Source: Aliihoeflea sp. 40Bstr573 (lineage in GTDB: Bacteria > Pseudomonadota > Alphaproteobacteria > Rhizobiales > Rhizobiaceae). From it: a stretch of DNA of 54,647 nt. The notes beneath the pieces are model-generated. The model had not been told where the DNA came from, searched no databases, and was given only the letters and a program-made list of their open reading frames with translations. The DNA is taken from assembly GCF_024105655.1 (NCBI RefSeq), contig NZ_JAAAMH010000018.1, forward strand, positions 1 through 54,647. The letters are read 5' to 3'. Of the stretch, positions 10,222 to 28,650 are shown in pieces; positions within the stretch are counted from its first letter, which is position 1; the number at the start of each line of letters is the position of its first letter. Both the position numbers and the translations under genes were made by a program.

Positions 10222-10264
10222 CGAGATCCCTGTTGCGACTGTCCGCTGAAACTGAATACGATTT

Positions 10265-10452: not shown

Positions 10453-11439
10453 ATGCCTATGCACCGAAACAGGGACGCCCCATCTGGTAGCTCCGTCCTC
10501 GCGCGTATTGTCGAGGGCAGCGCTGGTAAGAGCACAATCCGGTTGCGCCAGTTGCGGCATTTCCTTGCTGCGGCCGACCACGGGAGCTTCCGCAAGGCTG
10601 CAATCGCCTTGGACATCAATGAATCATCGGTCAGCCGCCAGATCCGCGACCTTGAGGATGAATTGGGTGCCTCACTATTCATACGACATTCGGGCGGGGT
10701 GCGGCTGACGGTCGCCGGGCAGGAGTTTCTGCGCAGCGCCCGGCATGCTCTTCGGCAGATCGACATCGGCGTGACCAAGGTTGCCGCGGTCGGTCGGGCT
10801 GACCAGGGACTGCTCAAGGTCGGGATATTTTCTTCGCTGGCGTCGGGATTTCTGTTTAACCTCCTGCGACGGTTCGGGACGCGCCATCCGACCGTTCAGG
10901 TCGATCTTATAGATGGAAATCCGTCCGAGCACGTCGCTGCCGTCCGGCAGTTGGATCTGGACATCGCTTTCATAACCGGAACGGCACCCTGGGATGGCTG
11001 CGAAACGGAGCATCTCTGGTGCGAACGGGTCTTCGTGGTGCTGCCTGCTGGCCATCCCTTGGCCGCCAAAGCCGAACTCGAATGGCCTGATCTGACAGGT
11101 GAACGCTTCATCGTGAGCGATGTCGCACCGGGCCAGGAGATCCACGACTATCTGGTTGCTCACCTTGCCGGTCTCGGTCATCACCCTGACATTCAATCCC
11201 AGCATGTGGGCCGCGACAATATCCTGTCGCTGGTAGCTGTCGGTCGGGGGCTAACGCTGACAAGCGAAGCCACCACCGTTGGGCAGTTTCCGGGGATCGC
11301 ATTCCGGCAACTGGCGGATGAAGTGCTGCCCTTCAGCATGGTCTGGTCGGATAGAAACGATAATCCGGCCTGCAGGCGCCTGTTGAGCATGGCTCGAGCG
11401 ATGGGGAAAACCTCGTCAGCATTACAACCGAACGCCTGA
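10453..11439 (+). CDS. LysR-type transcriptional regulator
   Basis: This 328-residue LysR regulator has its winged helix at about residues 29-88 (IRLRQLRHFLAAADHGSFRK, then ESSVSRQIRDLEDELGASLF). A periplasmic-binding-protein-like effector domain follows (GLLKVGIFSSLASG, DLDIAFITG). The first ~28 residues are an extra tail, so a later start is possible. LysR genes commonly lie just downstream of trbI/DUF2274 in these ICEs. Its target is not evident; divergence from the TetR gene suggests a shared control region at 10222-10452. Confidence 0.88.
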   Translation: MPMHRNRDAPSGSSVLARIVEGSAGKSTIRLRQLRHFLAAADHGSFRKAAIALDINESSVSRQIRDLEDELGASLFIRHSGGVRLTVAGQEFLRSARHALRQIDIGVTKVAAVGRADQGLLKVGIFSSLASGFLFNLLRRFGTRHPTVQVDLIDGNPSEHVAAVRQLDLDIAFITGTAPWDGCETEHLWCERVFVVLPAGHPLAAKAELEWPDLTGERFIVSDVAPGQEIHDYLVAHLAGLGHHPDIQSQHVGRDNILSLVAVGRGLTLTSEATTVGQFPGIAFRQLADEVLPFSMVWSDRNDNPACRRLLSMARAMGKTSSALQPNA

Positions 11440-11596
11440 GGGGACATCGTCGCGTTCCAAATGTGTGCCTCTGTTGCGATTCCTCTCATACAGCACCACT
11501 TTCAGCGCCGACGGGAAGCCTCAGTTCCGCAGGATGCGTGGCACAAGAACTCCTGCGTTCCCCCCACCGAACGAAATTCGGCGGAAGTCGCGGGCT

Positions 11597-13717: not shown

Positions 13718-13907
13718 GTATCCCCACTTTCTGAATCGCGCCCTTATATTTTTCGCAGCCTATTCGCCGGCCGTGGGATTGTCACCGACGCGAGCACTGA
13801 GAGCGGCACTTATTGGCCCAGAACAGGTCCGACCCGTCGTCGTTGGCCACAGGTCCAGACCGGAACATCGATGCTGACGCGACGGTGACCACAAGTTATG
13901 GTGCCCC

Positions 13908-15287
13908 ATGACCTTTGCCTTCTACGATCTGGAGACGACCGGCACTTCCCCTGCATTCGATCAGCCCCTGCAATTCGCTGCCATTTTGACGGATGATGCG
14001 CTCGCGGAGATCGAGCGCGTCAATTTGCGTTGCCGCATCGCGCCGCATGTCATTCCGTCGCCTTGGGCGCTTGCAGTTACCGGGGTGCGCCCGGCGCAGC
14101 TCCTAGACCCGGCTTTGCCGACGTTCTTCGAGCTTGCGCAGCAAATCGGCGCGCTGATCAAGCGCTGGTCTCCCGCGATCTGGACCGGTTTCAACAGCGT
14201 CCGCTTCGATGAGGAAATGCTGCGCCAGGCCTTTTATCAGAACCTGCAGCCCGACATCTTCGCCACCCAGTTCAACGGCAACACGCGCTTCGATGTGCTG
14301 ACCGCGCTCTATGCCGTCTGGTATCGTCAGCCTGACCTGTTTGAGTGGCCGGTCGAGGTGGATGGCAGGTTACGCTTCAATTTGGACCGCATAGCGCCGC
14401 TGAACGGCTTTGCTGCACACGATGCGCATGATGCGCTCGGCGATGTCGAGGCGACCATACACATCGCCCGCCGCATCGCCGACCGTGCCCCGGCGCTCTG
14501 GGCAGAATTGCTGGCCAACCGGGACAAGGCGCATGTTCAAGCCAGCCTTGAAACCTACCAGCCCATGGCGCTGGTGGAGCGTTTTGGCGGCGGCCCGCCG
14601 CACGCGACCGTCGGCTGCTTCTGTGGCATGTCGGCCAGCAACGCCAATCAGGCGGCCTTCTTCGATCTTGATGCCACTGATCCGGCAGATCTCCTTGCGG
14701 TCGATGACGCAACGCTCTTTGCTGCCGTCGATGCCACACCCAAGGTCATCCGGGCCTTCTCGATCAATAAGTCACCCGCTTTACTTTCGGTCTCGACGCC
14801 CAGCGCTATCCAGGTGCAGCGGGCACATGTGATCGCTACTGCTCCTGACTTCCGGGCGCGGGTCGCGCAGGCGCTGGCCGCCCGCTTCCCCAAAGATCCT
14901 GCGGCACCGCTGCCTCCGGTAGAAAAGCAGATCTATGACGGCTTCTACGGCCATGCGGACAAGACTCTCCTTGCCAAGTTCCAGCCTGCGGACTGGCGTC
15001 GACGGCAGGAGATCGTGTCCAGTCTTGCAGACCCCCGCCTGCGCCAGCTCGGCCGCCGCCTCGTTGCGTTTCACGCGCCCGATCTGCTCTCGACCGAAGA
15101 GCGCGGGCAATACGAGGCATGGTTGCGGGGGCGCTGGTCTGCACCGGAGGACCGGGAGACTGAATGTATGACCACGGTTCGCGCACACGCTGCTCTGGAC
15201 GAGATGCGGGCCGATGAAGGGCTCGATCTGGGACTTGTCGCCGAGATCGAGATATTCCTGCAACAGTTTGGTCTGCCGGAAAGCTAA
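13908..15287 (+). CDS. sbcB: Exonuclease I, 3'-5' single-strand DNA exonuclease
   Basis: Exonuclease I degrades single-stranded DNA 3' to 5' and acts with RecJ and RecBCD-type repair. The 459-residue product is close to the E. coli length (475). DEDDh catalytic motifs are visible: FYDLETTGTSP with Asp7 and Glu9, a middle NSVRFDEEML motif, and a HDAHDALGDVEAT motif carrying the His and last Asp. The C-terminal SH3-like and helical regions are present (QIYDGFYGHADK). It is rare for an ICE to carry sbcB, so it may be cargo that works with the nearby nucleases. A 52-base gap separates it from the WYL regulator. Confidence 0.93.
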   Translation: MTFAFYDLETTGTSPAFDQPLQFAAILTDDALAEIERVNLRCRIAPHVIPSPWALAVTGVRPAQLLDPALPTFFELAQQIGALIKRWSPAIWTGFNSVRFDEEMLRQAFYQNLQPDIFATQFNGNTRFDVLTALYAVWYRQPDLFEWPVEVDGRLRFNLDRIAPLNGFAAHDAHDALGDVEATIHIARRIADRAPALWAELLANRDKAHVQASLETYQPMALVERFGGGPPHATVGCFCGMSASNANQAAFFDLDATDPADLLAVDDATLFAAVDATPKVIRAFSINKSPALLSVSTPSAIQVQRAHVIATAPDFRARVAQALAARFPKDPAAPLPPVEKQIYDGFYGHADKTLLAKFQPADWRRRQEIVSSLADPRLRQLGRRLVAFHAPDLLSTEERGQYEAWLRGRWSAPEDRETECMTTVRAHAALDEMRADEGLDLGLVAEIEIFLQQFGLPES

Positions 15288-15339
15288 CGATCAGAGGCTG
15301 TTCAGCTACCAGAATCATTTTATTGCGAGGGACTAATTT

Positions 15340-16242
15340 ATGGTTCTATACTCGCAACAGGTGAAGGAAAGGCTCGGTGTGCCCCGCAGACAGATCAAAC
15401 AGCTGAACTGGGGTGCGGAGCGGCGTAACGAGTTCATCGAATTCCGGGTGTTCTGGCATGGCCGGATCAATCGCTCGGACCTGATGGAAACTTTCGGCAT
15501 CTCACTCCAGCAGGCATCCCTCGACCTGACGGGCTATGCAGAGCGGTGGAAGCGAAACCTCGTCTATGACAAGAGCCAGCGTGCCTATGTCCGGGGTCGG
15601 AGCTTCAAGCCGCATTTCATAAAGCCTTCCGCCGAGGACTATCTCGCTCAGCTGCGTGCCCTCGATCAGGGCCTGGTCTCGCGCGAGCAGAGCTGGATCT
15701 GTCTGTTTCCAGGCTATGGAACCACGCCGACACCCGCGCGGGGGATTGCGTCCGAAACCCTGCGCGAGGTGTTGACCGCCATTCATGAGCCATCGGCTCT
15801 TGAGGTAACCTACCAGTCGATGTCGCGCCCCGAGCCAAGCGCGCGCTGGATCGAGCCGCACTCACTGGCCTTCGACGGGTTTCGCTGGCACGCCCGTGCG
15901 TTCTGTCAGAATGACCAGGTGTTCAAGGATTTCCTGCTCTCCCGGATTGTCGAAACAGGCAAGCACGGGCCGGTCACGGCCGACCCTCAGAGTGATGTCG
16001 ATTGGCACACGGAGGTCATCCTGGAAATCGGGCCGCATCCTGATCTTTCTCCAACGCAACGTCGTGCGATCGAGATGGATTATGGGATGGAGAACGAGCG
16101 CGCGCAGATTCCTGTGCGCAAGGCGCTGCTGTTCTATGCGCTCAAGCGTCTCGGCCTCGACACGGACCCGGCGGCGCGGCGGCCGCAGGACCAGCAAATT
16201 GTACTGATCAGCCAGAATTCCCTGCCAAAGGTCTACGCATGA
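15340..16242 (+). CDS. WYL-domain transcriptional regulator of the BrxR/CapW type
   Basis: The 300-residue product has an N-terminal winged helix with the BrxR/CapW-like signature RRNEFIEFRVFWHGRINRSD and FGISLQQASLDL (about residues 27-65). The middle WYL domain follows (about 130-205, EVTYQSMSRP, then WIEPHSLAFDGFRWHARAFC). A WCX-like C-terminal domain ends the protein. BrxR/CapW homodimers repress phage-defence operons and are thought to respond to ligands through the WYL domain. Its TGA overlaps the methyltransferase ATG, so it is co-translated with the system it probably controls. The family match is strong; the ligand is unknown. Confidence 0.88.
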   Translation: MVLYSQQVKERLGVPRRQIKQLNWGAERRNEFIEFRVFWHGRINRSDLMETFGISLQQASLDLTGYAERWKRNLVYDKSQRAYVRGRSFKPHFIKPSAEDYLAQLRALDQGLVSREQSWICLFPGYGTTPTPARGIASETLREVLTAIHEPSALEVTYQSMSRPEPSARWIEPHSLAFDGFRWHARAFCQNDQVFKDFLLSRIVETGKHGPVTADPQSDVDWHTEVILEIGPHPDLSPTQRRAIEMDYGMENERAQIPVRKALLFYALKRLGLDTDPAARRPQDQQIVLISQNSLPKVYA

Positions 16243-18920
16243 ACCCCACTGAAATTTACGAGGCCTTGGCCAATCTTGCGAGCAAGCCCTTCGATGCTGC
16301 GGAATTTCCCTTCGAGTTCGCCTTGGCGACCGACAACGCACCCGCGACGATCGCGAAGCTCAAGGGCGGCACCTACAACAAGTCCGACATTCCCGATGGG
16401 GTGCTTCTGAACCAGAAGTTCCATTTTTCCCCGGCACTGCCCGGCATGAGCGCGGCGTGTCTGGATGCCTTGCGGGCCAGCAAGCGAAACGCGAAGCACC
16501 GGCCCGCTATTCTGATCGCCACAGACGGACAAGAAATCGCCGCCGAGCATCCAAAGTCCGGCGACACCCTTTATTGCGCCTTTTCGGAACTTGGCGACCG
16601 CTTCGGCTTTTTCCTGCCCGCCGCCGGGAAGGAACGCTACCGCGCGGCCGAGGAGAACCCGGTTGACGTCAAGGTCGCGGGCAAGCTGGCCAAGCTTTAC
16701 GACGCGCTGATCCGCAAGAACCCGGACTGGGCAGAAAAGGCGCGTCAGCATGACATGAACCAGCTGATGACCCGGCTGATCTTTTGCATGTTTGCCGAAG
16801 ATGTCGGTATCTTCCCCGAAAATCAGTTCAGCCGCCTGATCTTCACCCATGCCGGCGACCGGGGTGAAGGGATGCGTGAGGTGTTGATCAACGCTTTCAC
16901 CGCGATGAACACGCCCAAGCCGGACAGAGGCGGGCTGCCCGCCTCGACGCGCGAGTTCGAATACGTCAACGGCGGCCTCTTTGCCGGCCGCATCGACGCG
17001 CCGGTGTTCGACGTGACCGCCACCCGGTATCTCAAGGATGTCTGTGGCGAGACCTGGACCGGGATCAACCCGGACATCTTCGGCTCGATGATCCAGTCGG
17101 TGGCGAACGCCAAATTGCGGTCGGAACTGGGGATGCACTATACCAGTGTCCCGAACATCATGAAGGTGCTGGGGCCGCTGTTCCTTGATGATCTTGATGC
17201 CGAAATCGAAAAGGCTTGGGGGCGCGAGCGGGCCTTGCGGCAGGTGCTGGAGCGGATCGGGAAAATCCGGGTGTTCGACCCGGCCTGTGGCTCGGGGAAT
17301 TTTCTTGTCGTCGCCTATCGGTCCCTGCGCGAGCGCGAGATCAGGATTCTGACGCGGCTTGCCGAACTGACCGGCGGCGCCCAGACCGAAATGTGGTCGG
17401 CGGTGCCGATCCGGAACTTCTATGGGATCGAACTGACCGATTTTGCCGTGGAAACGGCAAAGCTGGCGCTGTTCATCGCCGAGTATCAGGCCAACGCCCT
17501 CTTCAAGGAGGCCTTCGGCCGCAAGCCCGCCGACCTGCCGCTGAGGGACGCGGCGAATATCGTCTGCGACAACGCGCTGCGGGTTGACTGGGAACGGGTC
17601 TGCCCGCCGCCGGAGGATGGCGGCGAGGTGTTCATCGCGGGGAACCCGCCGTTTGTCGGAACAACCTACCGGACAGCCGAACAGAAAGCGGACTTCAATC
17701 ATGTTTTCAGCGGTCGCGTAGATTCGAGCGGGCGTCTTGATTTCGTATCGGCATGGCTGCTTAAGGCTGCCGACTATGTTCGCGATCATGCCGGTGTCGC
17801 AGCTCTACTTGCAACAAGTTCCACAGTTCAGGGGGCATCTGTTGAACCGCTTTGGACCGAGATTTTGAGTGGCGGAAACCAGATTTTCTTTGCCCACCGA
17901 TCGTTTAAATGGCGAAACAACGCGGCGAGAAACGCGGCAGTTGAGTGCGTGATCGTAGGGCTTCGGCAGCACAAGCAGGGATCTGTTCGCCTATTTGATG
18001 AAAGCACAGCCCATACTGTCGAAGCAATCAATGCCTACCTGATTGCGGGCCAACAGATATTTGTCGCCGCTACGCGGAATAGTCTTTTTGGTATGCCGCA
18101 GATGGGGCCGGGGAATTTTCCATACGACTTCGGGCACCTCATCCTGTCGCCGGAGGAAAGGGATGCCATGCTGGATGTTTCCCCGGAAGCTGCGCCCTTC
18201 ATCAGAAAATTCGGTGGTTCACGCGAGGTGATCCACGGCCTCCAGCGGTTCTGCCTCTGGATAGACGATCATGAGGTCGAGGTTGCGAGAAAAATTCCGG
18301 AAATTAGCCGTCGGATCGACGCTGTAAAGACCGACCGTCTTGCGAGCAAGGATTCTGGGACACGTCGAATGGCGCAGCGACCACACCAATTCCGCGAACA
18401 TGTTGCGCCGAAGAGCCACGCTATTCTTGTCCCCCGAACGAGTTCTGAAAATCGACCATATCTTCCCTTTGATCGTGTGGGCGCTGATTTTGTGTCGTCA
18501 GACAATAACCATGTCATACTGGACGCCCCCGACTGGTGCATGGCGCTGATCGCCTCGCGCCTGCATCTGGTCTGGATCGGGACGGTCTGCGGGCGGCTGG
18601 AATCCCGTTTCCGCTATTCCAACACCCTCGGCTGGAACACCTTCCCGGTCCCGAAATTCACCGGCGATCAACTGGCTGCCCTGACCGCCTCGGCCATGGC
18701 CATCCTGCGCTGTCGCTATGGCCATTACCCGGCGACCATTGCCCAGCTTTACGATCCCGACAAGATGCCCGACGATCTGCGCGCCGCCCACAAGGCAAAC
18801 GATGACCTGCTGGAAAGCATGTATATCGGCCGCCCGTTCCGCAATGACACCGAACGGCTGGAGCACCTGTTCAAGCTCTATGCCGCGCGGGCGAAAAAGC
18901 TGAAGAAGGGGGCCGCCTGA
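16239..18920 (+). CDS. MmeI-like class I DNA (adenine) methyltransferase without N-terminal nuclease
   Basis: This 893-residue enzyme should transfer methyl groups from S-adenosylmethionine to DNA adenine. Motif I is FDPACGSGNFLV (about residues 346-357) and motif IV is the NPPF form (AGNPPFVGT, about 467). An MmeI-type helicase-spacer-like segment (MTRLIFCMFAEDVGIFP) lies before the catalytic domain. A long target-recognition and C-terminal region follows (RFRYSNTLGWNTFPVP). The MmeI PD-ExK nuclease domain is not seen at the N-terminus; a different ~180-residue domain stands there, as in a known branch of these enzymes. Cleavage would therefore have to come from a partner, most simply the GIY-YIG protein encoded two genes downstream. 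It is coupled at both ends (ATGA and TGATG). Confidence 0.88.
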   Translation: MNPTEIYEALANLASKPFDAAEFPFEFALATDNAPATIAKLKGGTYNKSDIPDGVLLNQKFHFSPALPGMSAACLDALRASKRNAKHRPAILIATDGQEIAAEHPKSGDTLYCAFSELGDRFGFFLPAAGKERYRAAEENPVDVKVAGKLAKLYDALIRKNPDWAEKARQHDMNQLMTRLIFCMFAEDVGIFPENQFSRLIFTHAGDRGEGMREVLINAFTAMNTPKPDRGGLPASTREFEYVNGGLFAGRIDAPVFDVTATRYLKDVCGETWTGINPDIFGSMIQSVANAKLRSELGMHYTSVPNIMKVLGPLFLDDLDAEIEKAWGRERALRQVLERIGKIRVFDPACGSGNFLVVAYRSLREREIRILTRLAELTGGAQTEMWSAVPIRNFYGIELTDFAVETAKLALFIAEYQANALFKEAFGRKPADLPLRDAANIVCDNALRVDWERVCPPPEDGGEVFIAGNPPFVGTTYRTAEQKADFNHVFSGRVDSSGRLDFVSAWLLKAADYVRDHAGVAALLATSSTVQGASVEPLWTEILSGGNQIFFAHRSFKWRNNAARNAAVECVIVGLRQHKQGSVRLFDESTAHTVEAINAYLIAGQQIFVAATRNSLFGMPQMGPGNFPYDFGHLILSPEERDAMLDVSPEAAPFIRKFGGSREVIHGLQRFCLWIDDHEVEVARKIPEISRRIDAVKTDRLASKDSGTRRMAQRPHQFREHVAPKSHAILVPRTSSENRPYLPFDRVGADFVSSDNNHVILDAPDWCMALIASRLHLVWIGTVCGRLESRFRYSNTLGWNTFPVPKFTGDQLAALTASAMAILRCRYGHYPATIAQLYDPDKMPDDLRAAHKANDDLLESMYIGRPFRNDTERLEHLFKLYAARAKKLKKGAA

Positions 18921-20995
18921 TGTCCGATTTCGTTCGCGTCACCTATGGCCAGACCGGCAAGACGCAGGAACCGAACCCGATGGGCATGCGCCCCATGCAG
19001 GCCCGAGTCTATGACGCCCGCGCGGCCCAGTTCATCCTGCTGAAGGCGCCGCCCGCCGCCGGGAAATCCCGCGCGCTGATGTTCGTGGCGCTGGACAAGC
19101 TGGAAAATCAGGGGGTGGGCAAGGCCATCGTCTGCGTCCCCGAAACTTCGATCGGCGCCTCGTTCCGGTCAACCGACCTTACCTCACACGGGTTCTTTGC
19201 GGATTGGCAGGTGGACCCGCGCTGGAACCTTTGCCTGAGCGGCGCAGAGGATGGGGTGACCAGCGGCAAGGTGCGCGCGGTGCGCGACTTCATGGCATCC
19301 GGGGATCGGGTGCTGGTCTGCACCCATGCCACCTTTCGCTTTGCCTTCGATGAGATCGCCGAGGACGAGGGGACAGCGGCCTTCGACGATTGCCTGATCG
19401 CCATCGACGAGTTCCACCATGTCAGCGCCGGGGATGACAACCGGCTGGGTGAAATCCTGCGCCGCATCCTGAACCGGGGTCAGGCGCATGTGATGGCGAT
19501 GACCGGCTCCTATTTCCGGGGCGACAGCATCCCGGTCCTGCGGCCCGAGGATGAAGCGCGGTTCCGGTCGATCACCTACAGCTATTACGAGCAGTTGGAC
19601 GGGTATCGGTTCCTGAAAAGCCTTGGAATTTCCTACAGTTTCTACCGGGACCAGTATATCAGCGCGATCCCCGAGGTGCTGAACCCGGACCTGAAGACCA
19701 TCATCCATATCCCGCATCGCGGCTCGGCCGAGGCCTATGACGTCAAGCAGTCCGAGGTGGGGGCAATCCTGAGCTGCATCGGCGAGGTGATCGGCCGGGA
19801 AGAGCAGACCGGATTCGATCTGGTCCGGCTCCCCGATGGGCGCGTTCTGAAGGTGGCGGACCTGGTGGACGACGGGCCGGAGCGCGATCTGGTGAAGGCC
19901 TCGCTGATCCGCGAGATCGTCGGGCCGGACGGCAAGCGCGACGATGATGCGGACCGGGCCAAGGTGGACCTGATCATCGCCCTCGGGATGGCGAAAGAGG
20001 GGTTCGATTGGGTCTGGTGCGAGCATGCGCTGACCATCGGCTATCGTTCCTCGCTGACAGAGATTATCCAGATCATCGGGCGCGCGACCCGCGATGCCCC
20101 CGGCAAGCGCCATGCCCAGTTCACCAATCTGGTGGCGGAACCCGGTGTCGAGACCGGGGTGGTCACGGATGCGGTCAATGACATGCTGAAGGCGATCTCG
20201 GGGGCTCTCCTGATGGAGCAGGTCCTGCAACCGAACTTCCGGTTCTACAGGCGCGAGGATGGCGATACCCGACCTCCTGTCGAGGTGGACGGCGAGGGTC
20301 GGGTTCATATCGGGATCGGTGGCTTGATGGCCCCTCCGACAGACCGCGCGCGGGCGATCGTCGAGAATGACATGCACGAGCTGGTGGCGCAGGCATGCCA
20401 GCAGATGGACCGGCGCACCGTCGCGGATGACGTGGCCCCAGAGGTCGCGACCCAGCTGGTGCTGACCAATATCATTGAGAAGACGTATGAAGACTTGACC
20501 CCCGACGAAACCGAAGCCATCCGGCAAGACTTGGCGGCCCGGATGAACATCGCCGCAATCGCGCGCCGAATGGCTCAGGAAGAGATGGAAAGCGGCGAGA
20601 AGGAGCCCGTCGAGGATACTGACGCGGACGAAGAGCGGTCGCCGGATGCGCTGAACCTGATCCGGATGGTAAAGAAGTTCATCAACGTGCGCGAACTGGA
20701 CATCGACCTTATCGACTCCATCAATCCGTTCCGGGAAGGGTTCGATATCGCATCCAAAGCGCTGGACACCCCTCTGCTCCAGCAGATCCAGAGCGCCATG
20801 GTCGCTCAGCGGGTCCAGATGACCGAAGAGGAGGCACTGGTCCTCTGGCCCCGGATCAAGCGGTTCACTGCCCAGGAAGGGCGTCCCCCGAACCCCAACT
20901 CGCCCGAGGATCTGGAACGTCGCCTTGCAGAGGCCCATGCCTACATCCGCACGAAAAAGGCGGAGCGGATGCGCGCAGCTCAAGGGGGTTCGTGA
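18920..20995 (+). CDS. DEAD/DEAH-type SF2 helicase of the methyltransferase cluster
   Basis: This 691-residue ATPase has Walker A APPAAGKS at residues 43-50, a DEFH box (AIDEFHHVSAG, about 162), a MTGSYFRGD motif III-like segment, and motif VI QIIGRATRD at about 383. Such enzymes translocate on or unwind DNA in restriction and defence systems. The C-terminal ~250 residues are acidic and helical, without a recognised domain. Its first base is the last base of the methyltransferase stop, and the GIY-YIG gene starts three bases after its own stop. A cleavage-coupled translocase role is inferred from context. Confidence 0.85.
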   Translation: MSDFVRVTYGQTGKTQEPNPMGMRPMQARVYDARAAQFILLKAPPAAGKSRALMFVALDKLENQGVGKAIVCVPETSIGASFRSTDLTSHGFFADWQVDPRWNLCLSGAEDGVTSGKVRAVRDFMASGDRVLVCTHATFRFAFDEIAEDEGTAAFDDCLIAIDEFHHVSAGDDNRLGEILRRILNRGQAHVMAMTGSYFRGDSIPVLRPEDEARFRSITYSYYEQLDGYRFLKSLGISYSFYRDQYISAIPEVLNPDLKTIIHIPHRGSAEAYDVKQSEVGAILSCIGEVIGREEQTGFDLVRLPDGRVLKVADLVDDGPERDLVKASLIREIVGPDGKRDDDADRAKVDLIIALGMAKEGFDWVWCEHALTIGYRSSLTEIIQIIGRATRDAPGKRHAQFTNLVAEPGVETGVVTDAVNDMLKAISGALLMEQVLQPNFRFYRREDGDTRPPVEVDGEGRVHIGIGGLMAPPTDRARAIVENDMHELVAQACQQMDRRTVADDVAPEVATQLVLTNIIEKTYEDLTPDETEAIRQDLAARMNIAAIARRMAQEEMESGEKEPVEDTDADEERSPDALNLIRMVKKFINVRELDIDLIDSINPFREGFDIASKALDTPLLQQIQSAMVAQRVQMTEEEALVLWPRIKRFTAQEGRPPNPNSPEDLERRLAEAHAYIRTKKAERMRAAQGGS

Positions 20996-20998
20996 CGG

Positions 20999-22237
20999 AT
21001 GCGGCGATACAGGTCGATCGAAGAAGTCCTTGAGGAAGAGGACGAACTGGGGCTTCTGAACGTAACCCTGCGGCCCCGCGCCACCCGATCGCCTGAACGG
21101 GAGCGGGATGCCCAATTGGTCACCGAGGTGAACGCATTCTTTGAACGGCATGGCCGTGTCCCGGATGCGGCGGCGGCAGATCATGATGAGATGCGTCTTG
21201 GCATGATCTGGAGCCGGCTGGTTGCCAAAGGGGATGCACCAGATCTGCTGGATGTCGATCGCAATGGCCTCTTGTCTGGCGGACGATTTGAGCTGACGCC
21301 CGAACCATTGGCTGCAGAACCCGATTGGCGCGACGATGTGGAAAACGACGAAGTACCTGCTTCTCTTGATGACATTTTTGACGATGAGGAGCTCGAGGTT
21401 TCAGAGGCGTTGACCGTGATCCGAAACGTGACCCCGGCGGAGGAACGGCTGGTTCCAGATCACCGGGCCGAGTTCTACCCCTGTCACGATTTCGATCGCT
21501 TCCGCGCGATGTTCGAGGGAACCCAGGCCGCGCTGGAGACCGGCGAGCGTGAGGTGCGCCCGATCAATCCAAATGAGGAGGTCAGAGTCGACGAAGGTTC
21601 CCTCTTCATTCGAAAGGGCTTGCTGACCTATGTCGCCGAGAAGGCGGAAATGACCGCTCGCGCAGGAAAACGCGATCACAGGCTCCGCATCATCTTCTCA
21701 AACGGCACGGAAAGCGATCCGCTCTTGTCGTCCTTCCGGAAGGCGCTCGCAGACGATCCTACCTCCCGCGCAATCCACAGGCACGGTCTGGGGGCGCTGG
21801 ATCCCGATTGGGAGGCGGACCGGATCGATCTGACGGGGACCGTATACGTGCTCCGGAGCAAGTCGAACGAACCTCAAATCGTTGAAGTGCGTAACATACT
21901 CCTGAAGATTGGAGTGACGACACAAGAGGTGCGCCGCCGGATTGCTGATGCGCGCAATGATCCGACCTTCTTGCTGGCTCCGGTCGAGGTCGTCGCCACC
22001 TATGATCTGGTCAACCTGTCCTGGCGAAAAGTGGAGGGGCTCCTGCACCGATTCTTTGATGCTGCCCGACCGCGTGACCTGTGGATCACGGACCGTTTCG
22101 GCCGAAAGGTCTACCCGCGGGAGTGGTTCTACGTTTTGCCGGAGCACGTGAGCAGGGCGGTCCAGGCAATCAAGGACGGCACCCTTCACCAGATTGAATA
22201 CGACCCGGAAACGCAAACAATCCGGAAGAAATCCTGA
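20999..22237 (+). CDS. GIY-YIG (T5orf172-like) nuclease of the cluster
   Basis: The product is 412 residues. The N-terminal ~270 residues are acidic and unassigned (EEVLEEEDELGLL; YPCHDFDRFRAMF). The C-terminal ~120 residues carry a GIY-YIG fold of the T5orf172 type: GTVYVLRS (about 279), LLKIGVTTQEVRRRI, and VEGLLHRFF with a Glu in the expected catalytic position. These nucleases nick or cut DNA. Tight linkage to a nuclease-less methyltransferase and a helicase suggests it supplies restriction activity. I infer this; no experiment on this set is known to me. Confidence 0.8.
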   Translation: MRRYRSIEEVLEEEDELGLLNVTLRPRATRSPERERDAQLVTEVNAFFERHGRVPDAAAADHDEMRLGMIWSRLVAKGDAPDLLDVDRNGLLSGGRFELTPEPLAAEPDWRDDVENDEVPASLDDIFDDEELEVSEALTVIRNVTPAEERLVPDHRAEFYPCHDFDRFRAMFEGTQAALETGEREVRPINPNEEVRVDEGSLFIRKGLLTYVAEKAEMTARAGKRDHRLRIIFSNGTESDPLLSSFRKALADDPTSRAIHRHGLGALDPDWEADRIDLTGTVYVLRSKSNEPQIVEVRNILLKIGVTTQEVRRRIADARNDPTFLLAPVEVVATYDLVNLSWRKVEGLLHRFFDAARPRDLWITDRFGRKVYPREWFYVLPEHVSRAVQAIKDGTLHQIEYDPETQTIRKKS

Positions 22238-22275
22238 GAGACCTGACAAATTCTCTAGACTGACAAGGTGCCCCA

Positions 22276-24534
22276 ATGACGATCTTCACTACAACCAGTT
22301 ATCCCGTGGGCGCCTTGATCGCCGATATTGATCTAGGCAAGGTCGGGCTACCCGACCTGCAGCGCCCCTTCGTCTGGGCGAATGTGAAGGTTCGCAACCT
22401 GTTTGACTCGCTCTACAAGGGGTATCCGGCGGGGTTCCTGCTGTTCTGGGACACTGGGGCAGAGGGAGGCCTGAAAGGCATTGGCGCTAAGAACAGCAAG
22501 GCCGTCCCCAAACTAGCCATCGTCGATGGGCAGCAACGACTGACCTCGCTTTATGCTGTTGTAAAGGGCGAGGAGGTGATCCGGGGAAACTTCAAGAAGG
22601 AGCGTATTCGTATCGCCTTCAATCCATTGACTGAGCGCTTCGCGGTTTGGGATGCTGCTATTGTGAAGGACAAGTCATTCATTCCTGATATCTCGGAACT
22701 CTGGCGACCTGAGGCCAACGTCTTTTCGATCGCCGGCGATTTTCTCGATCAACTGTCGTCGGTGCGCGAGTTATCGGATGCGGACAAGAAAAGGATCCAG
22801 AACGCCATTGGCAAGCTGCACGGGTTGACGAACCAGTACTCTTTTACCGCCCTTACTCTGTCTGCCATGGTCGACGGTGCGACCGTGGCAGATGTATTCG
22901 TGCGGATCAACGGAGAGGGTAAACAACTCAACCAGTCCGATTTCATCATGACGCTAATGTCGGTATACTGGGATGAGGGGCGCACCGAACTGGAGGCGTT
23001 TGCCCGTGCCGCCACGAAGCCTCACGACGGTCATGCCTCACCGTTCAACCATTTCATCAAGCCCGCTCCCGACCAGATGCTCAGAGCGACGATTGGGTTG
23101 GCCCTTAAGCGCGCAAGGCTTGAAAACGTCTACAATGCCCTCCGTGGCCGCGATGCCAAGACCGGCATCGACAACCCCGAAAGGCGCGATGAGCAGTTTC
23201 AAAAGATGCAGGCTGGACAGGCGGAGGCACTGAATCTGGCAAACTGGCACCATTTCCTTAGCGCGCTGACTTTGGCTGGGTATCGCGGGGAGAAGATGAT
23301 CAGCTCCGAGACGGCGATTATCTACAGCTATGTGCTCTACTTGGTCGGCATCGTGGACTATGGCATTGACAAGCAGTCAATGCGCCAGGCCATCGCCGAG
23401 TTCTTCTTCATGGCGGCCTTGACCGGCCGCTATACGAACTCCCCAGAAACCCGGTTTGAGGCGGATCTGGCTCTCGTTCGGGATCTGTCAGGCGGTACAG
23501 AGTACCTTGCGATGCTGCGCAAGATCTGCGCAACGACGTTGACGCCCGATTACTGGAGCATCACGCTGCCCAGTCAGCTGGCGACCTCTGCCTCCCAAAG
23601 CCCGTCGCTTTTTGCCTACAACGCATCGCTGATCAAGCTTGATGCCTGCGCCCTCTATAGCCCGGTGAAAATCGCAAGCCTTGTCGACCCTGCCGTGAAG
23701 GGGACCAAGGTTGCCCTCGAACGGCATCATCTTTTTCCACGCGCCCATCTTGAGGAAACTGGCATCCGGGAACTGAAGAAGATCAATCAGATCGCAAATT
23801 TCGCGCCGGTAGAATGGCCCGAAAACATCCGCATCGGTAAGAAGCCGCCGTCAGCCTATGTGCCACCGTTGGACGCTGCGCTTTCCGCGGAGAAGCGAAC
23901 GGAGCTCTATTTCTGGCATGCGCTTCCGCACCTGTGGTGGGAGATGCCTTACGAAGCTTTCTTGGTCGAGCGGCGGGAACGCATGGCGCGTGTCATCGAG
24001 GCAGCTTGGAAGCTTCTCAATGGTAATGGGCCGAGCGTAGCGAAGGCGGAGATCAGCGTCGCAGAGCTGATAGAGACCGGTGAAACCGATGCCGTCGAGT
24101 TCAAGTCTACACTGCGCGTCAATCTCCACACCGGCCAGCAGGACGACAAGATTCATGTGTCAGCGTTGAAAACCATTGCCGGCTTTCTGAACGCCAAGGG
24201 TGGGACGCTACTTCTCGGGGTCGCCGATAATGGCGAAGTGCTCGGGCTCGAAGCCGATGGCTTTCCGGATGAAGACAAGATGGCCCTTCATCTCGCGAAC
24301 CTGATCACGTCACGATTGGGGGATATCTTCCGTCCCTACGTTCACCCGAGGTTCGAAGAACAAGATGGTGTTCGTGTTCTAATGGTTCGCGTTGAACCTG
24401 GCCCGCGCGAGGCCTTCTTGAAGGATGGCAACCTCCAGCGCTTCTTCGTCCGTGGTGGTAATGCTACCGCAGAACTACAGGGGAACGCTATCACCGAGTA
24501 TGTCAAGCAGCGTTTCGGAAAAAGCGCCGGTTAG
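22276..24534 (+). CDS. DUF262-HNH-AlbA_2 fusion protein
   Basis: This 752-residue protein combines three modules. Residues about 10-290 form a DUF262 domain (LPDLQRPFVWANVKVRNLFD and the conserved DGQQRLTS at about 84-91), the NTP-binding ParB-like module of GmrSD-type enzymes. Near residue 480 lies an HNH-like motif, LERHHLFPRAHL, as in DUF1524-type nucleases. Residues about 600-745 are an AlbA_2/divergent AAA-4-like domain (ETDAVEFKSTLR, GFLNAKGGTLLLGVADNG). GmrSD enzymes attack modified DNA, so this could target modified phage DNA. It follows the GIY-YIG gene by 38 bases and may share its operon or be an independent unit. Confidence 0.82.
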   Translation: MTIFTTTSYPVGALIADIDLGKVGLPDLQRPFVWANVKVRNLFDSLYKGYPAGFLLFWDTGAEGGLKGIGAKNSKAVPKLAIVDGQQRLTSLYAVVKGEEVIRGNFKKERIRIAFNPLTERFAVWDAAIVKDKSFIPDISELWRPEANVFSIAGDFLDQLSSVRELSDADKKRIQNAIGKLHGLTNQYSFTALTLSAMVDGATVADVFVRINGEGKQLNQSDFIMTLMSVYWDEGRTELEAFARAATKPHDGHASPFNHFIKPAPDQMLRATIGLALKRARLENVYNALRGRDAKTGIDNPERRDEQFQKMQAGQAEALNLANWHHFLSALTLAGYRGEKMISSETAIIYSYVLYLVGIVDYGIDKQSMRQAIAEFFFMAALTGRYTNSPETRFEADLALVRDLSGGTEYLAMLRKICATTLTPDYWSITLPSQLATSASQSPSLFAYNASLIKLDACALYSPVKIASLVDPAVKGTKVALERHHLFPRAHLEETGIRELKKINQIANFAPVEWPENIRIGKKPPSAYVPPLDAALSAEKRTELYFWHALPHLWWEMPYEAFLVERRERMARVIEAAWKLLNGNGPSVAKAEISVAELIETGETDAVEFKSTLRVNLHTGQQDDKIHVSALKTIAGFLNAKGGTLLLGVADNGEVLGLEADGFPDEDKMALHLANLITSRLGDIFRPYVHPRFEEQDGVRVLMVRVEPGPREAFLKDGNLQRFFVRGGNATAELQGNAITEYVKQRFGKSAG

Positions 24535-24875
24535 CCGCCGCACCGCATCGCATGAAGGCTGATGCGCCCTGAGATCTCGGGCCCGTACGGGCTGGTCCGG
24601 ACATAGGCGTCAGGCGCTCACCTCGTAGGGCAAGCATCTACCTGACCACGTTCCGACAACAGTGCCAGAAGGGCGGGATTGATGCAGAGGTTCTCGTGCC
24701 CGACCTTCCCCATCGAGTGTCGGGCACACATCTGGGCGGAGGAGGCCCTCTGGGCTTCTGTCGGCTTCAGTGAGCGCTCCGGCCATTCTGACTCGCCAGT
24801 AGCGATTGAAAACTTCCCAAATCGGTGTGACTAGACTACGATTCTAGGAAAACCATGGTCGGATGAGGCAGCGCG
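24535..24875. other. 341-base gap before the ietA-like gene
   Basis: I see no convincing gene. The DNA is likely to hold the promoter of the downstream ATPase/protease pair; an AT-richer stretch near 24810-24850 is the best place. A weak Shine-Dalgarno (GATGAGG, 24862-24868) precedes the GTG start. The low-complexity coding scraps in the middle are not recognisable. Confidence 0.4.
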
Positions 24876-25883
24876 GTGTCAAATGCGAAGCAGATACTGG
24901 CGATGCTGAGAAGCCAGGCAGAGGGCGATGAGGAGCAATTTTACTCCATCGCGCTGCAGGTTGCAGCCGGGGAAGCACGTCAGGGCCACCGGGCGACCGC
25001 CGAAGAAATCCGTTCGGCGGTAGATGCCGTACGCGCGCAGCGTGGCGTCAGAGCTTCGGTCCCGATTTCTTTCTCGCGTCCGCGTGGCGATCTCGACAAC
25101 TTGCTGGACCTGCGGGAAGCGAGAATCCGTCTCGCCGACGTCGTCCTGAACATGGACATCAAGGGGCATCTCGAAGCTGTGGTGCTTCAACAGCGACGCC
25201 GGGACTGGTTGCGGGAACATGGCAAGACCCCCAGCCGCCGCATCCTTTTCGCTGGCCCGCCGGGGTCGGGCAAGACCATAACTGCGGAGGCGCTGGCTGG
25301 GGAACTGCGACTGCCGCTCTTCGTGATCCGACTCGAAAGCCTGATCACACGCTTCATGGGGGAAACGGCGAGCAAGTTACGACTTGTCTTTGATGAGGCA
25401 CAGCGGCGCAGGGGCGTCTATCTGTTCGACGAGTTTGATGCTGTTGGTAGCAACCGGCTTGCAACCAACGATGTGGCCGAGATGCGTCGCGTACTGAACA
25501 GCTTCCTTCAGTTCATGGAAGAGCCATCCGCGACCGATAGCGTTCTGGTGGCGGCGACCAATCACCCATCCCTGCTGGATCGCGCTCTGCTTCGGCGTTT
25601 CGATGAGGTTTTGCAGTTCGAAATGCCGACTCCTGACGAGGTGCGGGCAATCATCAAGGCACATCTAGCGCCGATGAAGTATCCTAAACTCGTCTGGAAA
25701 ACAATCGAGACAGCGGCGGAAGGGTTGAGTCAGGCAGAAATTGTTCATGCTGCGGAAGAAGTTGTCAAGGAAGCCATTCTCGCGGAAAGGGGGCAGGTTT
25801 CTACAGCTGACTTGATCCGCCAACTTAACAAGCGGCAAAGCATGAAAACTGTGTTCGCCGAGGAAAAAGAACGTCTTGGCTGA
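24876..25883 (+). CDS. ietA: AAA+ ATPase, IetA-like
   Basis: The 335-residue product starts at GTG and has an AAA+ domain: Walker A AGPPGSGKT at about residues 126-134, Walker B with GVYLFDEFDAVG at about 180-191, sensor-1 VAATNHPSLL, and an arginine-finger segment LLRRFDEVLQF. It pairs with the overlapping downstream subtilase as in IetA/IetS. That pair was first described as a stabilising/toxin-type module on an Agrobacterium Ti plasmid and later listed among antiviral systems. The ATPase probably controls the protease. The eight-base overlap supports coupled expression. The symbol is by family resemblance. Confidence 0.85.
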   Translation: MSNAKQILAMLRSQAEGDEEQFYSIALQVAAGEARQGHRATAEEIRSAVDAVRAQRGVRASVPISFSRPRGDLDNLLDLREARIRLADVVLNMDIKGHLEAVVLQQRRRDWLREHGKTPSRRILFAGPPGSGKTITAEALAGELRLPLFVIRLESLITRFMGETASKLRLVFDEAQRRRGVYLFDEFDAVGSNRLATNDVAEMRRVLNSFLQFMEEPSATDSVLVAATNHPSLLDRALLRRFDEVLQFEMPTPDEVRAIIKAHLAPMKYPKLVWKTIETAAEGLSQAEIVHAAEEVVKEAILAERGQVSTADLIRQLNKRQSMKTVFAEEKERLG

Positions 25884-28377
25884 ATACGAGCATCGTCACA
25901 TTGATCTCAGCGGATTGGGAGTGGTCCGCGACTATAAATCCCCTGGCAGCAACGCGCGCCAAAGGACATTGCAGAGAATTCGCGAAGAGCATGGTCGTCG
26001 GCTGGTTGGGGAACTCAATGCCGCCCTTCAGTTTACGGACCAGAGGCGAGAAGTCCTCGATCTTCCCGATGGAGCACCGCCCCCCGATGGGGTTTACCTT
26101 GAGGTTGAACTCGCGCCGGGTGTGGGACCTACGACCCTCGAGCGGAAGCGTGAGAGAACGCGACAGGGGGCCGTAACAGTCACCGCGAATGGCGCCCGGC
26201 GCATTGCGCTCTTTGTGCCGGACGATACGCGCGACGTGTTCGACGCTGTCTTTCGTGACTATGCGTTCACCGAGGTGGAAGACGGGGAGAAGATTCCGAA
26301 GAAATCCCGTGTCGAGCCGGTCGAGCATGTCCGTACTGCCCGCCTTCAGACCTTTTGGCGTGACGACCCGGATGCATTGCCTGACGATCCGCAGGCGGAA
26401 ATGTGGTGGGCACTATGGTGCTTTCGAGATCGGGTCGAGCGCGTTGACGACCTTGCGCAGCGCCTGGGGCTGACCGTCGGAGATGACGATACGCGATTGC
26501 GGTTTCCGGAAGTGATCGTTCTCCCCGTCCATGGCCGCCGGGCTGTGATCGAGTTGTTGCTGTTTTCGACCGGGGGAATCGCTGAGATCCGCCGGGCGAC
26601 CGACACGCCTGCGGTATTCACTGACGAGCTCCACGGTATGGTAAGCGATTTCGTTGAAAATCTCGCCGAGCGTGTCACTTGGCCGGGCAGGGACGTGCCT
26701 GCCGTCTGCCTGCTCGATACCGGCATCAATCGCGGGCATGCCCTGATCGAGCCGGCGCTCGACCGTGGTGATCTACATACGGTGGTTGCTGACTGGGGCG
26801 TTGATGACCATAGCAACATCGGTCATGGTTCAGGAATGGCTGGTCTCGCTTTGCACGGCGACTTGACCACGCAACTAGGGGACGCATCACGGCCAGTCCT
26901 ATCGCACCGCTTGGAATCGGTAAAAATCCTTCCGCCGGATAGTTTTGAGCCGAATGATCCGTTTTCCTACGGTGCAATCACAACCTCGGCGGCGGCATTG
27001 CCGGAGATCGCGGCTTCTGAGCGTCCCAGAGTTTTCTGCATGGCTGTCACCAACGAGAATCGTTCCGGAGCGGAGCCGACGGGATGGAGCGCGGCACTCG
27101 ACCAGATATCCTCCGGCGCCGATGCGGTCGAGGAGGGGCCTGATCATATCCGTCGACTGTTCGTGCAGGCACTCGGCAACATTGGAGACAGTTCCCACGC
27201 TGACGAGATAGCCGATGCCGACGCTTTCCCGGGCGAGGATCCGGCACAGGCGTGGAATGTGCTTACCGTGGGCGGCACCACGCTGAAATCCGATATTGCC
27301 GAGTACGCCTACCGGGACTGGTCCGGTTGGTCGCGTCCGGGGGATCGGAGTCCATACAGTCGGACGACGACGCTCTGGCGGTCGAGCCAGTCCCCCATAA
27401 AACCTGAGGTCGTGTTTGAAGCTGGCAACCGCGCGGTCAGCAGGTCAGGAATTGAGGCCGTGTCCGGGCTGCCGTCTCTTTCTCTGCTGACGACTTCCAA
27501 AACTGCTGTTCCCGAGCCGATTGTGTCCTTCTGGGCGACGAGCGCGGCAACCGCCCAGGCGGGACGGATGGCCGCGCGCATGATGGCCGAACGTCCCGAC
27601 TACTGGCCGGAAGCCGTCAGGGCCCTGATGGTGCACAGCGCGCGGTGGACGCCGCATATGCTCGCGGAGTTTGCCGGAGCAGCGGGCAAGGCCGAACGAA
27701 AGGCTCTGACCAGAAAGTATGGATATGGGGTGCCCAATCTGCGTCGCGGCATAGCTTCGGCGCGCGACGACCTTGCCCTGGTCGCACAGCGGAACATCCA
27801 GCCCTTCCGTATGGACGGCGGAAACGTGCGGTTTGGTGATGCCCATGTCTACCGCTTGCCCTGGCCGCGAGACGTCCTGGAAAGCCTCGGTAACGAGCGC
27901 ATCAGGTTGAAGGTGACATTGTCGTATTTCGTGGAGCCGAATCCGAGCTTCGCAAGCGCGATCGATCCTGCACGATACCAGTCGTTCGGTCTGCGTTTCG
28001 ACTTGAAGCGAGCGCGTGAGACAGAACGCAATTTCATGCGTCGGGTCAATAAGGACGACCGGGATGAGGGCGATCTTCGGCCGGTGAATGAAGACAACGA
28101 TGGTTGGTTCTTTGGGCCGAAGTCGGTGTCGGCCGGTTCAGTCCACATGGATATTTGGGAGGGCAGTGCCGTTGAGCTTGCAGCGCGGGACCTTCTCTAT
28201 GTGTTTCCGATTTCAGGTTGGTGGCGCGAGCGCAAGGCGCTTGGAAGAGCCGAGAGCAAGAGTCGATATGCGCTCGTTGTCGGTATCGAGGCACCGGATG
28301 TCGACGTTGACCTGATCACACCAATCGCAACAGAGCTTGCGAACCTGATAGCAGCGGGCGTAGCAATCGAGACATAG
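25876..28377 (+). CDS. ietS: Subtilisin-like (S8) serine protease, IetS-like
   Basis: This 833-residue protein starts at TTG inside the ATPase gene. The catalytic triad can be placed: Asp281 in VCLLDTGINRGHA, His317 in GHGSGMAGLALHG, and Ser556 in FWATSAATAQAGRMAARM. No signal peptide is seen, so it should act in the cytoplasm. N-terminal and C-terminal regions (about 1-270 and 640-833) are unassigned, as in IetS-type proteins. With its AAA+ partner it fits the IetAS defence/addiction module. All catalytic residues are present, so it looks active. It is the last gene before the element boundary at 28542-28574. Confidence 0.85.
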   Translation: MAEYEHRHIDLSGLGVVRDYKSPGSNARQRTLQRIREEHGRRLVGELNAALQFTDQRREVLDLPDGAPPPDGVYLEVELAPGVGPTTLERKRERTRQGAVTVTANGARRIALFVPDDTRDVFDAVFRDYAFTEVEDGEKIPKKSRVEPVEHVRTARLQTFWRDDPDALPDDPQAEMWWALWCFRDRVERVDDLAQRLGLTVGDDDTRLRFPEVIVLPVHGRRAVIELLLFSTGGIAEIRRATDTPAVFTDELHGMVSDFVENLAERVTWPGRDVPAVCLLDTGINRGHALIEPALDRGDLHTVVADWGVDDHSNIGHGSGMAGLALHGDLTTQLGDASRPVLSHRLESVKILPPDSFEPNDPFSYGAITTSAAALPEIAASERPRVFCMAVTNENRSGAEPTGWSAALDQISSGADAVEEGPDHIRRLFVQALGNIGDSSHADEIADADAFPGEDPAQAWNVLTVGGTTLKSDIAEYAYRDWSGWSRPGDRSPYSRTTTLWRSSQSPIKPEVVFEAGNRAVSRSGIEAVSGLPSLSLLTTSKTAVPEPIVSFWATSAATAQAGRMAARMMAERPDYWPEAVRALMVHSARWTPHMLAEFAGAAGKAERKALTRKYGYGVPNLRRGIASARDDLALVAQRNIQPFRMDGGNVRFGDAHVYRLPWPRDVLESLGNERIRLKVTLSYFVEPNPSFASAIDPARYQSFGLRFDLKRARETERNFMRRVNKDDRDEGDLRPVNEDNDGWFFGPKSVSAGSVHMDIWEGSAVELAARDLLYVFPISGWWRERKALGRAESKSRYALVVGIEAPDVDVDLITPIATELANLIAAGVAIET

Positions 28378-28541
28378 CAAGAATGCTCTGCCTTGTGCCG
28401 ATTGGAGGCTGCCTAGCTGCGGCTACCTTGTTTTGCCCCGAAGGACGCGCGCAGGTTCGACGTACGGAACTGGATATTTTCTTATGAGTCTTAATAGGTT
28501 AGGCTAAGCGGCAAGTCTTGGGATATTCCGTTCGACCAATC

Positions 28542-28574
28542 GCAAGTATCGTTGGTTGCCTGCCCCCGCAACCA
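28542..28574 (+). repeat. att-like repeat unit D, ending in an initiator-tRNA 3' end sequence
   Basis: The unit is GCAAGT, 17 bases, then CCCGCAACCA. The last part reads GCCCCCGCAACCA (28562-28574), identical to the 3' end of bacterial initiator tRNA including CCA. No T-arm or tRNA body precedes it, so it is a tRNA-end scar rather than a tRNA. The same unit occurs three times near 51.43-51.56 kb. The nearby TTGGTTGC and GCAACCAA are also an inverted repeat. I infer a chromosome-ICE junction (att site). Confidence 0.6.
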
Positions 28575-28604
28575 AATAAACCCAAAGAATACAGATACTT
28601 AAAC

Positions 28605-28627: not shown

Positions 28628-28650
28628 GCGTTCCAAAATCAGGGTCAGCA

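What the first reader, a model, noticed from the sequence alone, without database searches (positions are those of the whole stretch)
15340..24534. Five-gene WYL, methyltransferase, helicase, GIY-YIG, DUF262-AlbA_2 run: candidate novel restriction-like defence system
Genes are coupled: ATGA between WYL and methyltransferase, TGATG between methyltransferase and helicase, three bases between helicase and GIY-YIG. The methyltransferase is MmeI-like in its catalytic part but has a different N-terminal domain in place of the PD-ExK nuclease. The GIY-YIG and helicase proteins would then supply cutting and translocation. The regulator is of the BrxR/CapW type that controls defence operons. Known BREX, DISARM and type I sets do not have this composition to my knowledge. 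The DUF262 fusion (38 bases downstream) may be a fifth component or a separate GmrSD-like unit.
Basis: partly seen in the sequence, partly recalled or inferred. Interest (0 to 1): 0.9.

Follow-up and report, generated by a model that had tools for sequence, protein, structure and literature searches.

The report
Split restriction system with separate nuclease
The genes are real and form a DNA-methylation-based anti-virus operon, but the three-gene core matches the already described DnmA-YeeB-YeeC set of Bacillus; new here are that its methylase has lost the cutter motif its stand-alone cousins keep, and that other defence-type genes often sit at one spot inside the operon.

Summary
All five genes, coordinates and couplings are confirmed. 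The core methyltransferase-helicase-GIY-YIG is not a new system: it matches dnmA-yeeB-yeeC, in print as a possible Type I-like restriction system (passages of PMC7261158 and PMC9973331). PMC9973331 reports no effect on three phages in B. subtilis but protection in Vibrio crassostreae. With the helicase as bait, 131 of 151 loci hold both partners; 17 of the 20 misses lie at contig ends. The regulator is CapW/BrxR-type but not conserved (one clear relative, L114). DUF262-AlbA_2 is an accessory (near the core in 2 of 151 other loci). Two points go beyond what I read. (1) MmeI-family methylases either keep a PD-ExK nuclease motif (17 of 18 stand-alone N-domains; the 18th is a fragment) with no helicase or GIY-YIG gene found beside them, or sit beside those genes and lack the motif at its aligned place (0 of 120 readable); on a tree this is one split. 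(2) Varied defence-type genes lie between methylase and helicase (gap of 450 bp or more in 46 of 136 loci; 42 of 131 after dropping doubtful ones) but hardly ever between helicase and nuclease (2 of 145). Most likely a split Type ISP/Type I-like restriction system.

The parts
15340..16242 (+). CapW/BrxR-type WYL transcriptional regulator (300 aa), probably repressor of the operon (inferred); local, not a conserved component
   Evidence: PDB phmmer: CapW 9.2e-64, BrxR 1e-49 over about 240-270 residues; Pfam WYL; only L114 has a relative beside the core among the loci held
16239..18920 (+). DnmA-type MmeI-family methyltransferase (N6-adenine inferred) with target recognition domain; N-terminal nuclease motif lost
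   Evidence: MmeI (5hr4) 2.4e-141; PDLC03598 5e-265; DPACGSGNF at residue 347 and NPPF at 469; no D-x9-E-x-K
16239..16715 (+). degenerate MmeI_N domain (residues 1-159), place of the missing PD-ExK motif
   Evidence: MmeI_N 4.3e-24; motif column comparison
18920..20995 (+). YeeB-type superfamily 2 helicase (691 aa), proposed DNA translocase
   Evidence: Walker A (residue 44 on), DEFH (163), QIIGRATRD (384), mostly invariant in 16 sequences; model with SF2 matches but low overall confidence
20999..22237 (+). YeeC-type protein with C-terminal GIY-YIG nuclease domain (about residues 280-391), proposed cutter
   Evidence: MUG113 4.7e-10 and T5orf172 2e-9; Y283, K303, G305, R314, E346, H350 invariant in 16 sequences; that these are catalytic positions is recalled from the GIY-YIG family
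22276..24534 (+). DUF262 (GmrSD-like) protein fused to Schlafen AlbA_2; HHLFP and NFAP letters read by eye as an HNH-like motif; accessory gene
   Evidence: GmrSD_N 3.8e-28, SLFN_AlbA_2 6.2e-16; PDB chain 7p9k 'DUF262 domain-containing protein' 6e-10; same fusion near the core in L154 and L223
24876..28377 (+). divergent IetA-IetS pair (AAA ATPase and subtilisin-like protease), a neighbouring separate defence system
   Evidence: PADLOC IetA 1.4e-68, IetS 6.4e-28; far below the NCBIfam equivalog cut-offs

Best explanation
The window holds a DnmA-YeeB-YeeC restriction-modification system under a CapW/BrxR-type regulator, beside two accessory defence units. The methylase recognises a short, probably asymmetric site and methylates adenine in it (inferred from MmeI and DnmA). 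On unmethylated foreign DNA the same methylase, its own nuclease motif gone, acts as the recognition module that loads the SF2 helicase; the helicase translocates; the GIY-YIG protein cuts, probably when complexes from head-to-head sites meet, as in Type ISP enzymes. Shown here: gene order, conserved motifs, lack of the PD-ExK motif, fixed co-occurrence, and the guest-gene slot between methylase and helicase. Inferred: complex formation, translocation, collision and cutting. The DUF262-AlbA_2 gene most likely covers phages with modified DNA, as the GmrSD homologue BrxU does beside BREX (PMC12707154, passage).
For: Both partners lie beside the helicase in 131 of 151 loci. Nuclease motif in cis or partner genes in trans: 0 of 121 coupled MTases (120 readable at the place) have the aligned D..E.K, while 17 of 18 stand-alone MmeI-type N-domains do, and none of 19 stand-alone loci has a helicase or GIY-YIG hit (14 of the 19 with at least 5 kb downstream to look at). 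The six stand-alone genomes of the order have no helicase match at all. Those residues are the nuclease site of MmeI by mutation (PMC4833311 passage). Guest genes sit between MTase and helicase in 46 of 136 loci (42 of 131 cleaned) against 2 of 145 (2 of 143) at the next junction, as prrC lies inside a Type I operon and RloF between HsdS and HsdR genes (PMC3874165, PMC4619093 passages). Deletion of dnmA or yeeB in V. crassostreae raises sensitivity to some phages, as PMC9973331 reports. Carriage on chromosomes, plasmids and virus contigs and an island-like GC dip.
Against: B. subtilis dnmA-yeeB-yeeC did not restrict plasmid uptake or three phages (PMC7261158, PMC9973331). No cleavage by any member is shown in what I read. 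The motif split is a single event on the tree, so it is one observation, not 121. A looser pattern (D-x8-12-E-x-K in the first 130 residues) hits 5 of 121 coupled MTases; in one (L107) it lies in the right hairpin, with E and K two residues further on. Five of the 19 stand-alone loci end within 1.1 kb downstream or inside the gene. No direct alignment with B. subtilis YeeB or YeeC was made. The helicase fold search is generic and the GIY-YIG model had no match under E 0.001.
Confidence: 0.67

Rival explanations
1. BREX-like action: the three proteins mark self by methylation and block replication of unmethylated DNA without cutting; the GIY-YIG domain nicks or only binds.
For: PglX is structurally closest to MmeI and lacks the nuclease domain (PMC11341690 passage); the regulator is BrxR-like; deletion of dnmA does not slow growth in B. 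subtilis (PMC7261158).
Against: No PglZ or BrxC match among the nine window proteins tested; GIY-YIG catalytic-type residues are invariant in 16 sequences.
Confidence: 0.17
2. A relic: only the methylase still works, as an orphan regulator, as proposed for B. subtilis.
For: B. subtilis single deletions had no phage phenotype (PMC9973331).
Against: All frames intact in the window, motifs kept and tight coupling; wide spread; V. crassostreae phenotype as reported in PMC9973331.
Confidence: 0.08
3. A five-gene (WYL to DUF262-AlbA_2) new system.
For: Short spacings in the window; DUF262-AlbA_2 also lies just upstream of the core in L154 and two genes downstream in L223; AlbA_2 occurs in 5 of 54 guest ORFs scanned.
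Against: DNA homology to the two nearest relatives stops near the GIY-YIG end; the fusion is near the core in only 2 of 151 other loci, within the flanks held; a full-length relative in G247 stands alone; WYL relative only in L114.
Confidence: 0.08

Closest known systems
DnmA-YeeB-YeeC (B. subtilis; homologues in Vibrio crassostreae)
   Same: MmeI-type N6A methylase without nuclease motif, SF2 helicase and T5orf172/GIY-YIG protein in this order; wide distribution
   Different: Window adds a CapW/BrxR-type regulator and a DUF262-AlbA_2 gene; the B. subtilis copy is reported without phage phenotype and lacks stretches of the YeeB and YeeC C-termini (PMC9973331)
MmeI (Type IIL)
   Same: Methylase, helical spacer, recognition and C-terminal domains; 2.4e-141 match
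   Different: MmeI cuts with its own PD-ExK site (D70, E80, K82); here the motif is gone and two further proteins are present
Type ISP (LlaGI) and Type I enzymes
   Same: Nuclease, translocase, gamma-methylase and recognition activities together; guest genes inside the operon as in Type I (prrC)
   Different: Separate polypeptides, GIY-YIG instead of Mrr-like/PD-ExK nuclease, no HsdS match
BREX / DISARM
   Same: MmeI-like methylase (DrmMI model 1e-31), a helicase, BrxR-type regulator
   Different: No PglZ, BrxC, DrmA or DrmB match in the nine proteins tested; dedicated GIY-YIG protein
GmrSD / BrxU / RloF (DUF262)
   Same: The fifth gene has the DUF262 domain and an HNH-like motif read by eye
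   Different: C-terminal AlbA_2 fusion; the words AlbA and Schlafen do not occur in the GmrSD family paper

Membership tests
DnmA-YeeB-YeeC system | MmeI-family methylase without nuclease motif | tested here: met
DnmA-YeeB-YeeC system | SF2 helicase first and T5orf172/GIY-YIG gene second downstream | tested here: met
   order as given in PMC9973331
DnmA-YeeB-YeeC system | Sequence homology to the B. subtilis proteins themselves | tested here: inconclusive
   Methylase families PDLC03598 (6 of 14 controls) and PF20473 (1 of 14) ring in the B. subtilis control genome; YeeB and YeeC not aligned directly; Bacillus mediterraneensis L061 has relatives of all three beside each other
DnmA-YeeB-YeeC system | Site-specific adenine methylation | not testable with these tools
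   needs long-read methylation mapping
Type IIL/IIG single-chain enzyme (MmeI) | PD-ExK nuclease in the same chain | tested here: not met
Type I RM | HsdS specificity subunit and HsdR with its own nuclease domain | tested here: not met
   No such match among the five proteins in the lists returned
Type ISP RM | All activities in one polypeptide | tested here: not met
   Three separate genes
BREX | PglZ and BrxC present | tested here: not met
   No PADLOC or NCBIfam match in the nine window proteins tested; rest of genome not tested
DISARM | DrmA and DrmB present | tested here: not met
   Only a DrmMI cross-match of the methylase among nine proteins
CapW/BrxR regulators | Homology over nearly the whole protein (wHTH, WYL and C-terminal parts; domain names recalled) | tested here: met
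   CapW residues 21-290, BrxR 31-271 of 300
GmrSD | DUF262 plus DUF1524 | tested here: inconclusive
   GmrSD_N over cut-off; no DUF1524 match up to 0.1, only an HHLFP/NFAP motif seen by eye
IetAS | IetA ATPase plus IetS protease adjacent | tested here: met
   PADLOC matches, but far under the NCBIfam equivalog cut-offs

The most novel reading that the evidence does not exclude
DnmA-YeeB-YeeC is a broad, unnamed class of multi-protein restriction: a Type IIL enzyme that swapped its built-in nuclease for a motor plus a GIY-YIG cutter in trans, and opened a slot between methylase and motor genes where interchangeable guard genes (AlbA_2/RecG-like, RhuM, DUF1016 nuclease, Abi, Fic, Mrr) plug in, parallel to the R-linked ORFs of Type I systems, to sense inhibition of the restriction complex.
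Probability: 0.5. Interest if true: 0.68.

Novelty: new member of a known kind. Interest (0 to 1): 0.42.

Why it matters
The system is common (helicase in 30 of 297 genomes of the order; in 262 of 72,556 plasmid records at E 1e-20, 152 of them over at least 80% of the query), yet PADLOC has a strong model only for its methylase, as a 'Type IIG' enzyme, although the nuclease motif is gone. If cutting moved to two other genes, experimenters must clone all three. The guest slot turns an open question, whether restriction systems carry guards against anti-restriction, into a comparison across many swappable genes in one fixed place. L034 (occupied) and L114 (empty) are close relatives ready for that test.

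Tried and rejected
Five-gene new system: rejected as a unit, because WYL and DUF262-AlbA_2 are not conserved and DNA homology to the two nearest loci stops near the GIY-YIG end. BREX, DISARM, MADS: only cross-matches of the methylase and of the neighbouring ATPase. YprA-type systems (ARMADA): PMC12458937 passages describe a YeeA-related methylase with three other helicases; not this set. Operator: a 7-nt inverted repeat around the WYL start is about what chance gives by my rough estimate and is absent in L114; dropped. GIY-YIG protein fold: no PDB match under E 0.001, only weak SH3/KOW-like hits. Helicase fold: generic SF2 matches from a model of mean pLDDT 66.

Corrections and weak points. 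A note of mine gave 18 of 18 stand-alone N-domains with the motif; one search shows 17 of 18. One search's count of DUF262 relatives is a lower bound: it missed the one in G080 (L223) that one search found. The guest count needs care: L071's 'guest' is the end of a split methylase, L151 duplicates L128, and L149, L155 and L156 have broken or partial helicases; without these five the gap counts are 42 of 131 and 2 of 143. The ORF picker missed L034's own guest. The tree leaves out virus loci L115-L156 and L199; its occupied/empty label uses a 300 bp gap, not 450. The 80 named loci are the best of 558 and many are metagenome bins, so phylum labels can be wrong. One search listed about as many low-scoring PF20473 matches (91-122 bits, other Type IIG-like proteins) as high-scoring ones; apart from the one in the own genome (L199) and the one in G248 (fetched through as L253) I did not follow them. 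The query bore the motif, so only one search's six stand-alone MTases are unbiased for it (six of six have it). Family scans were given 74 of 88 upstream ORFs, 54 of 55 guest ORFs and 50 of 51 downstream ORFs, plus the window's WYL and DUF262 genes; they list only 25 families, so rare families are not visible.
Full report
What is there. The regulator is a CapW/BrxR-type WYL protein (CapW 9.2e-64, BrxR 1e-49). The methylase matches MmeI over residues 123-883 (2.4e-141) and all five Pfam MmeI domains. The helicase carries conserved SF2 motifs and the third protein a conserved GIY-YIG set in alignments of 16 sequences. The DUF262 protein ends in an AlbA_2 domain and is followed by a divergent IetA-IetS pair.

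Is the set conserved? The helicase occurs in 30 of 297 genomes of the order, with a single match in its own genome. With it as bait, 80 named genome loci (the best of 558) and 43 virus-contig loci were fetched, plus 28 extended loci from the order. Same-strand methylase and GIY-YIG relatives lie beside it in 73 of 80, 30 of 43 and 28 of 28. Of the 20 misses, 17 have the contig end within 2.5 kb on the side of the missing gene; the other three (L149, L155, L156) have partial helicases. The 80 named loci carry 14 phylum names, one archaeal, and one has none. The helicase is in 262 plasmid records but nearly absent from the phage collection: two records with a fragment, none for the GIY-YIG protein.

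Is it known? Yes. Passages in PMC9973331 describe dnmA-yeeB-yeeC: an MmeI homologue without nuclease motif, with helicase and T5orf172/GIY-YIG genes at the first and second downstream positions in many genomes. They report no effect of single deletions on three Bacillus phages, and cite Piel et al. for increased sensitivity to some phages on deletion of dnmA or yeeB in V. crassostreae. PMC7261158 cites Morgan 2009 for the missing nuclease motif and the Type I-like proposal. I did not see Morgan 2009, Makarova 2011 (not held) or Piel et al. Ten literature searches showed no name for the system in the listings and passages I read; most subscription papers are outside that library.

What is added here, first: nuclease motif in cis or partner genes in trans. 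Stand-alone MmeI-type methylases carry D-x9-E-x-K where MmeI has D70, E80 and K82, residues needed for its cutting (PMC4833311 passage). Of 18 stand-alone N-domains found, 17 have it and the last is a fragment that ends before the place. None of 19 stand-alone loci has a helicase or GIY-YIG hit, though five of them end within 1.1 kb downstream or inside the gene; the six stand-alone genomes of the order have no helicase match anywhere. Of 121 coupled methylases of 780 residues or more, window included, none has the three residues at the aligned place; one (L069) has no letters there. Against this: a looser pattern anywhere in the first 130 residues hits five coupled ones, and in L107 it lies in the right hairpin with E and K two residues further on, so a nuclease there is not excluded. 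The domain thus looks eroded, not replaced. On a tree built without this domain, coupled (94) and stand-alone (13) methylases fall on two sides of one branch (SH-like support 91): one evolutionary switch, not many.

Second: a guest slot. The gap between methylase and helicase is 450 bp or more in 46 of 136 loci, that between helicase and GIY-YIG in 2 of 145 (Fisher p 2e-14, which ignores relatedness; 22 of 74 against 1 of 78 in the named genomes). Without five doubtful loci the counts are 42 of 131 and 2 of 143. Of the 55 guest ORFs of 150 or more residues, one is a methylase fragment (L071); all are on the operon strand; they fall into 28 clusters, that fragment included. Of 31 loci with a single ORF in the gap, 22 have at most 30 bases on both sides and nine have 4-base overlaps at both ends. 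On the methylase tree, occupied (gap of 300 bp or more, 34 rows) against empty (60 rows) needs at least 26 changes. Families among 54 of the 55: HATPase_c_4 6, AlbA_2 5, RhuM 3, DUF1016/YhcG 3, PDDEXK_4 3, Abi_2 3, Fic 2 and singles such as Mrr and PIN; several guests have no Pfam match. The close relative L034 has a weakly Abi_2-like gene (under Pfam's cut-off) exactly at this junction, where the window and L114 are empty. A Type I operon holds prrC, and RloF elements lie between HsdS and HsdR genes (PMC3874165, PMC4619093 passages).

Third: what does not belong to the core. A relative of the window's WYL gene was found beside the core only in L114; the commonest upstream family is an HTH_3 regulator, 6 of 75 proteins scanned. 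DUF262-AlbA_2 lies near the core in L154 (directly upstream) and L223 (two genes downstream), 2 of 151 other loci within the flanks held, and a full-length relative in G247 stands without it. IetA relatives at 2e-32 or better lie near the core in L051, L061 and L113.

How it probably works. Type ISP enzymes join nuclease, translocase, gamma-methylase and recognition domain in one chain, read asymmetric sites and cut when two head-to-head complexes meet (PMC3874165 passage). The window's three proteins appear to hold the same activities in separate chains, with GIY-YIG in place of an Mrr-like nuclease. A head-to-head rule would also solve the problem of one-strand methylation after replication that PMC3874165 discusses for MmeI. 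These steps are inference; no cutting has been shown in anything I read.

Verdict. A real, probably working restriction system; core already described, hence a new member of a known kind. The cis/trans nuclease split across many genomes and the guest slot are the parts I did not see in the papers read.

Noticed in passing
24876-28377: Divergent IetA-IetS pair after the DUF262 gene; IetA relatives (2e-32 or better) also lie near the core in L051, L061 and L113, one gene before the methylase in L051.
   Followed up: partly
L034:2568-3383: Weakly Abi_2-like gene exactly at the methylase/helicase junction of a close relative; the window and L114 are empty there.
   Followed up: yes
L107 methylase, N-terminal hairpin: The one helicase-coupled methylase whose N-terminal hairpin shows D, then E and K shifted by two residues; may be a remnant or a still active nuclease.
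   Followed up: partly
13908-15287: SbcB-type exonuclease I gene just upstream; it matches PADLOC's DRT-associated SbcB model; a reverse transcriptase was not looked for; probably ordinary exonuclease I.
   Followed up: no
10000-29000: GC falls from about 0.63-0.69 on either side to 0.55-0.64 for most of this stretch, as expected for an acquired island; the flanks were not annotated by tool.
   Followed up: partly
L199 (own genome, contig C14:2160-4784): A second, distant methylase of the same broad family in the own genome, without a recognisable MmeI-type N-domain and without helicase or GIY-YIG neighbours.
   Followed up: partly
L224:3970-6716: A coupled methylase whose frame is broken by one TGA in a genome that keeps helicase and GIY-YIG; described only.
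   Followed up: no
20999-22237 (residues about 184-261): Predicted small beta-strand region before the GIY-YIG domain with weak, non-significant likeness to SH3/KOW domains.
   Followed up: partly
11597-13717, - strand: 706-aa ORF with a UPF0149 (YgfB/YecA) match at residues 561-683 only.
   Followed up: no
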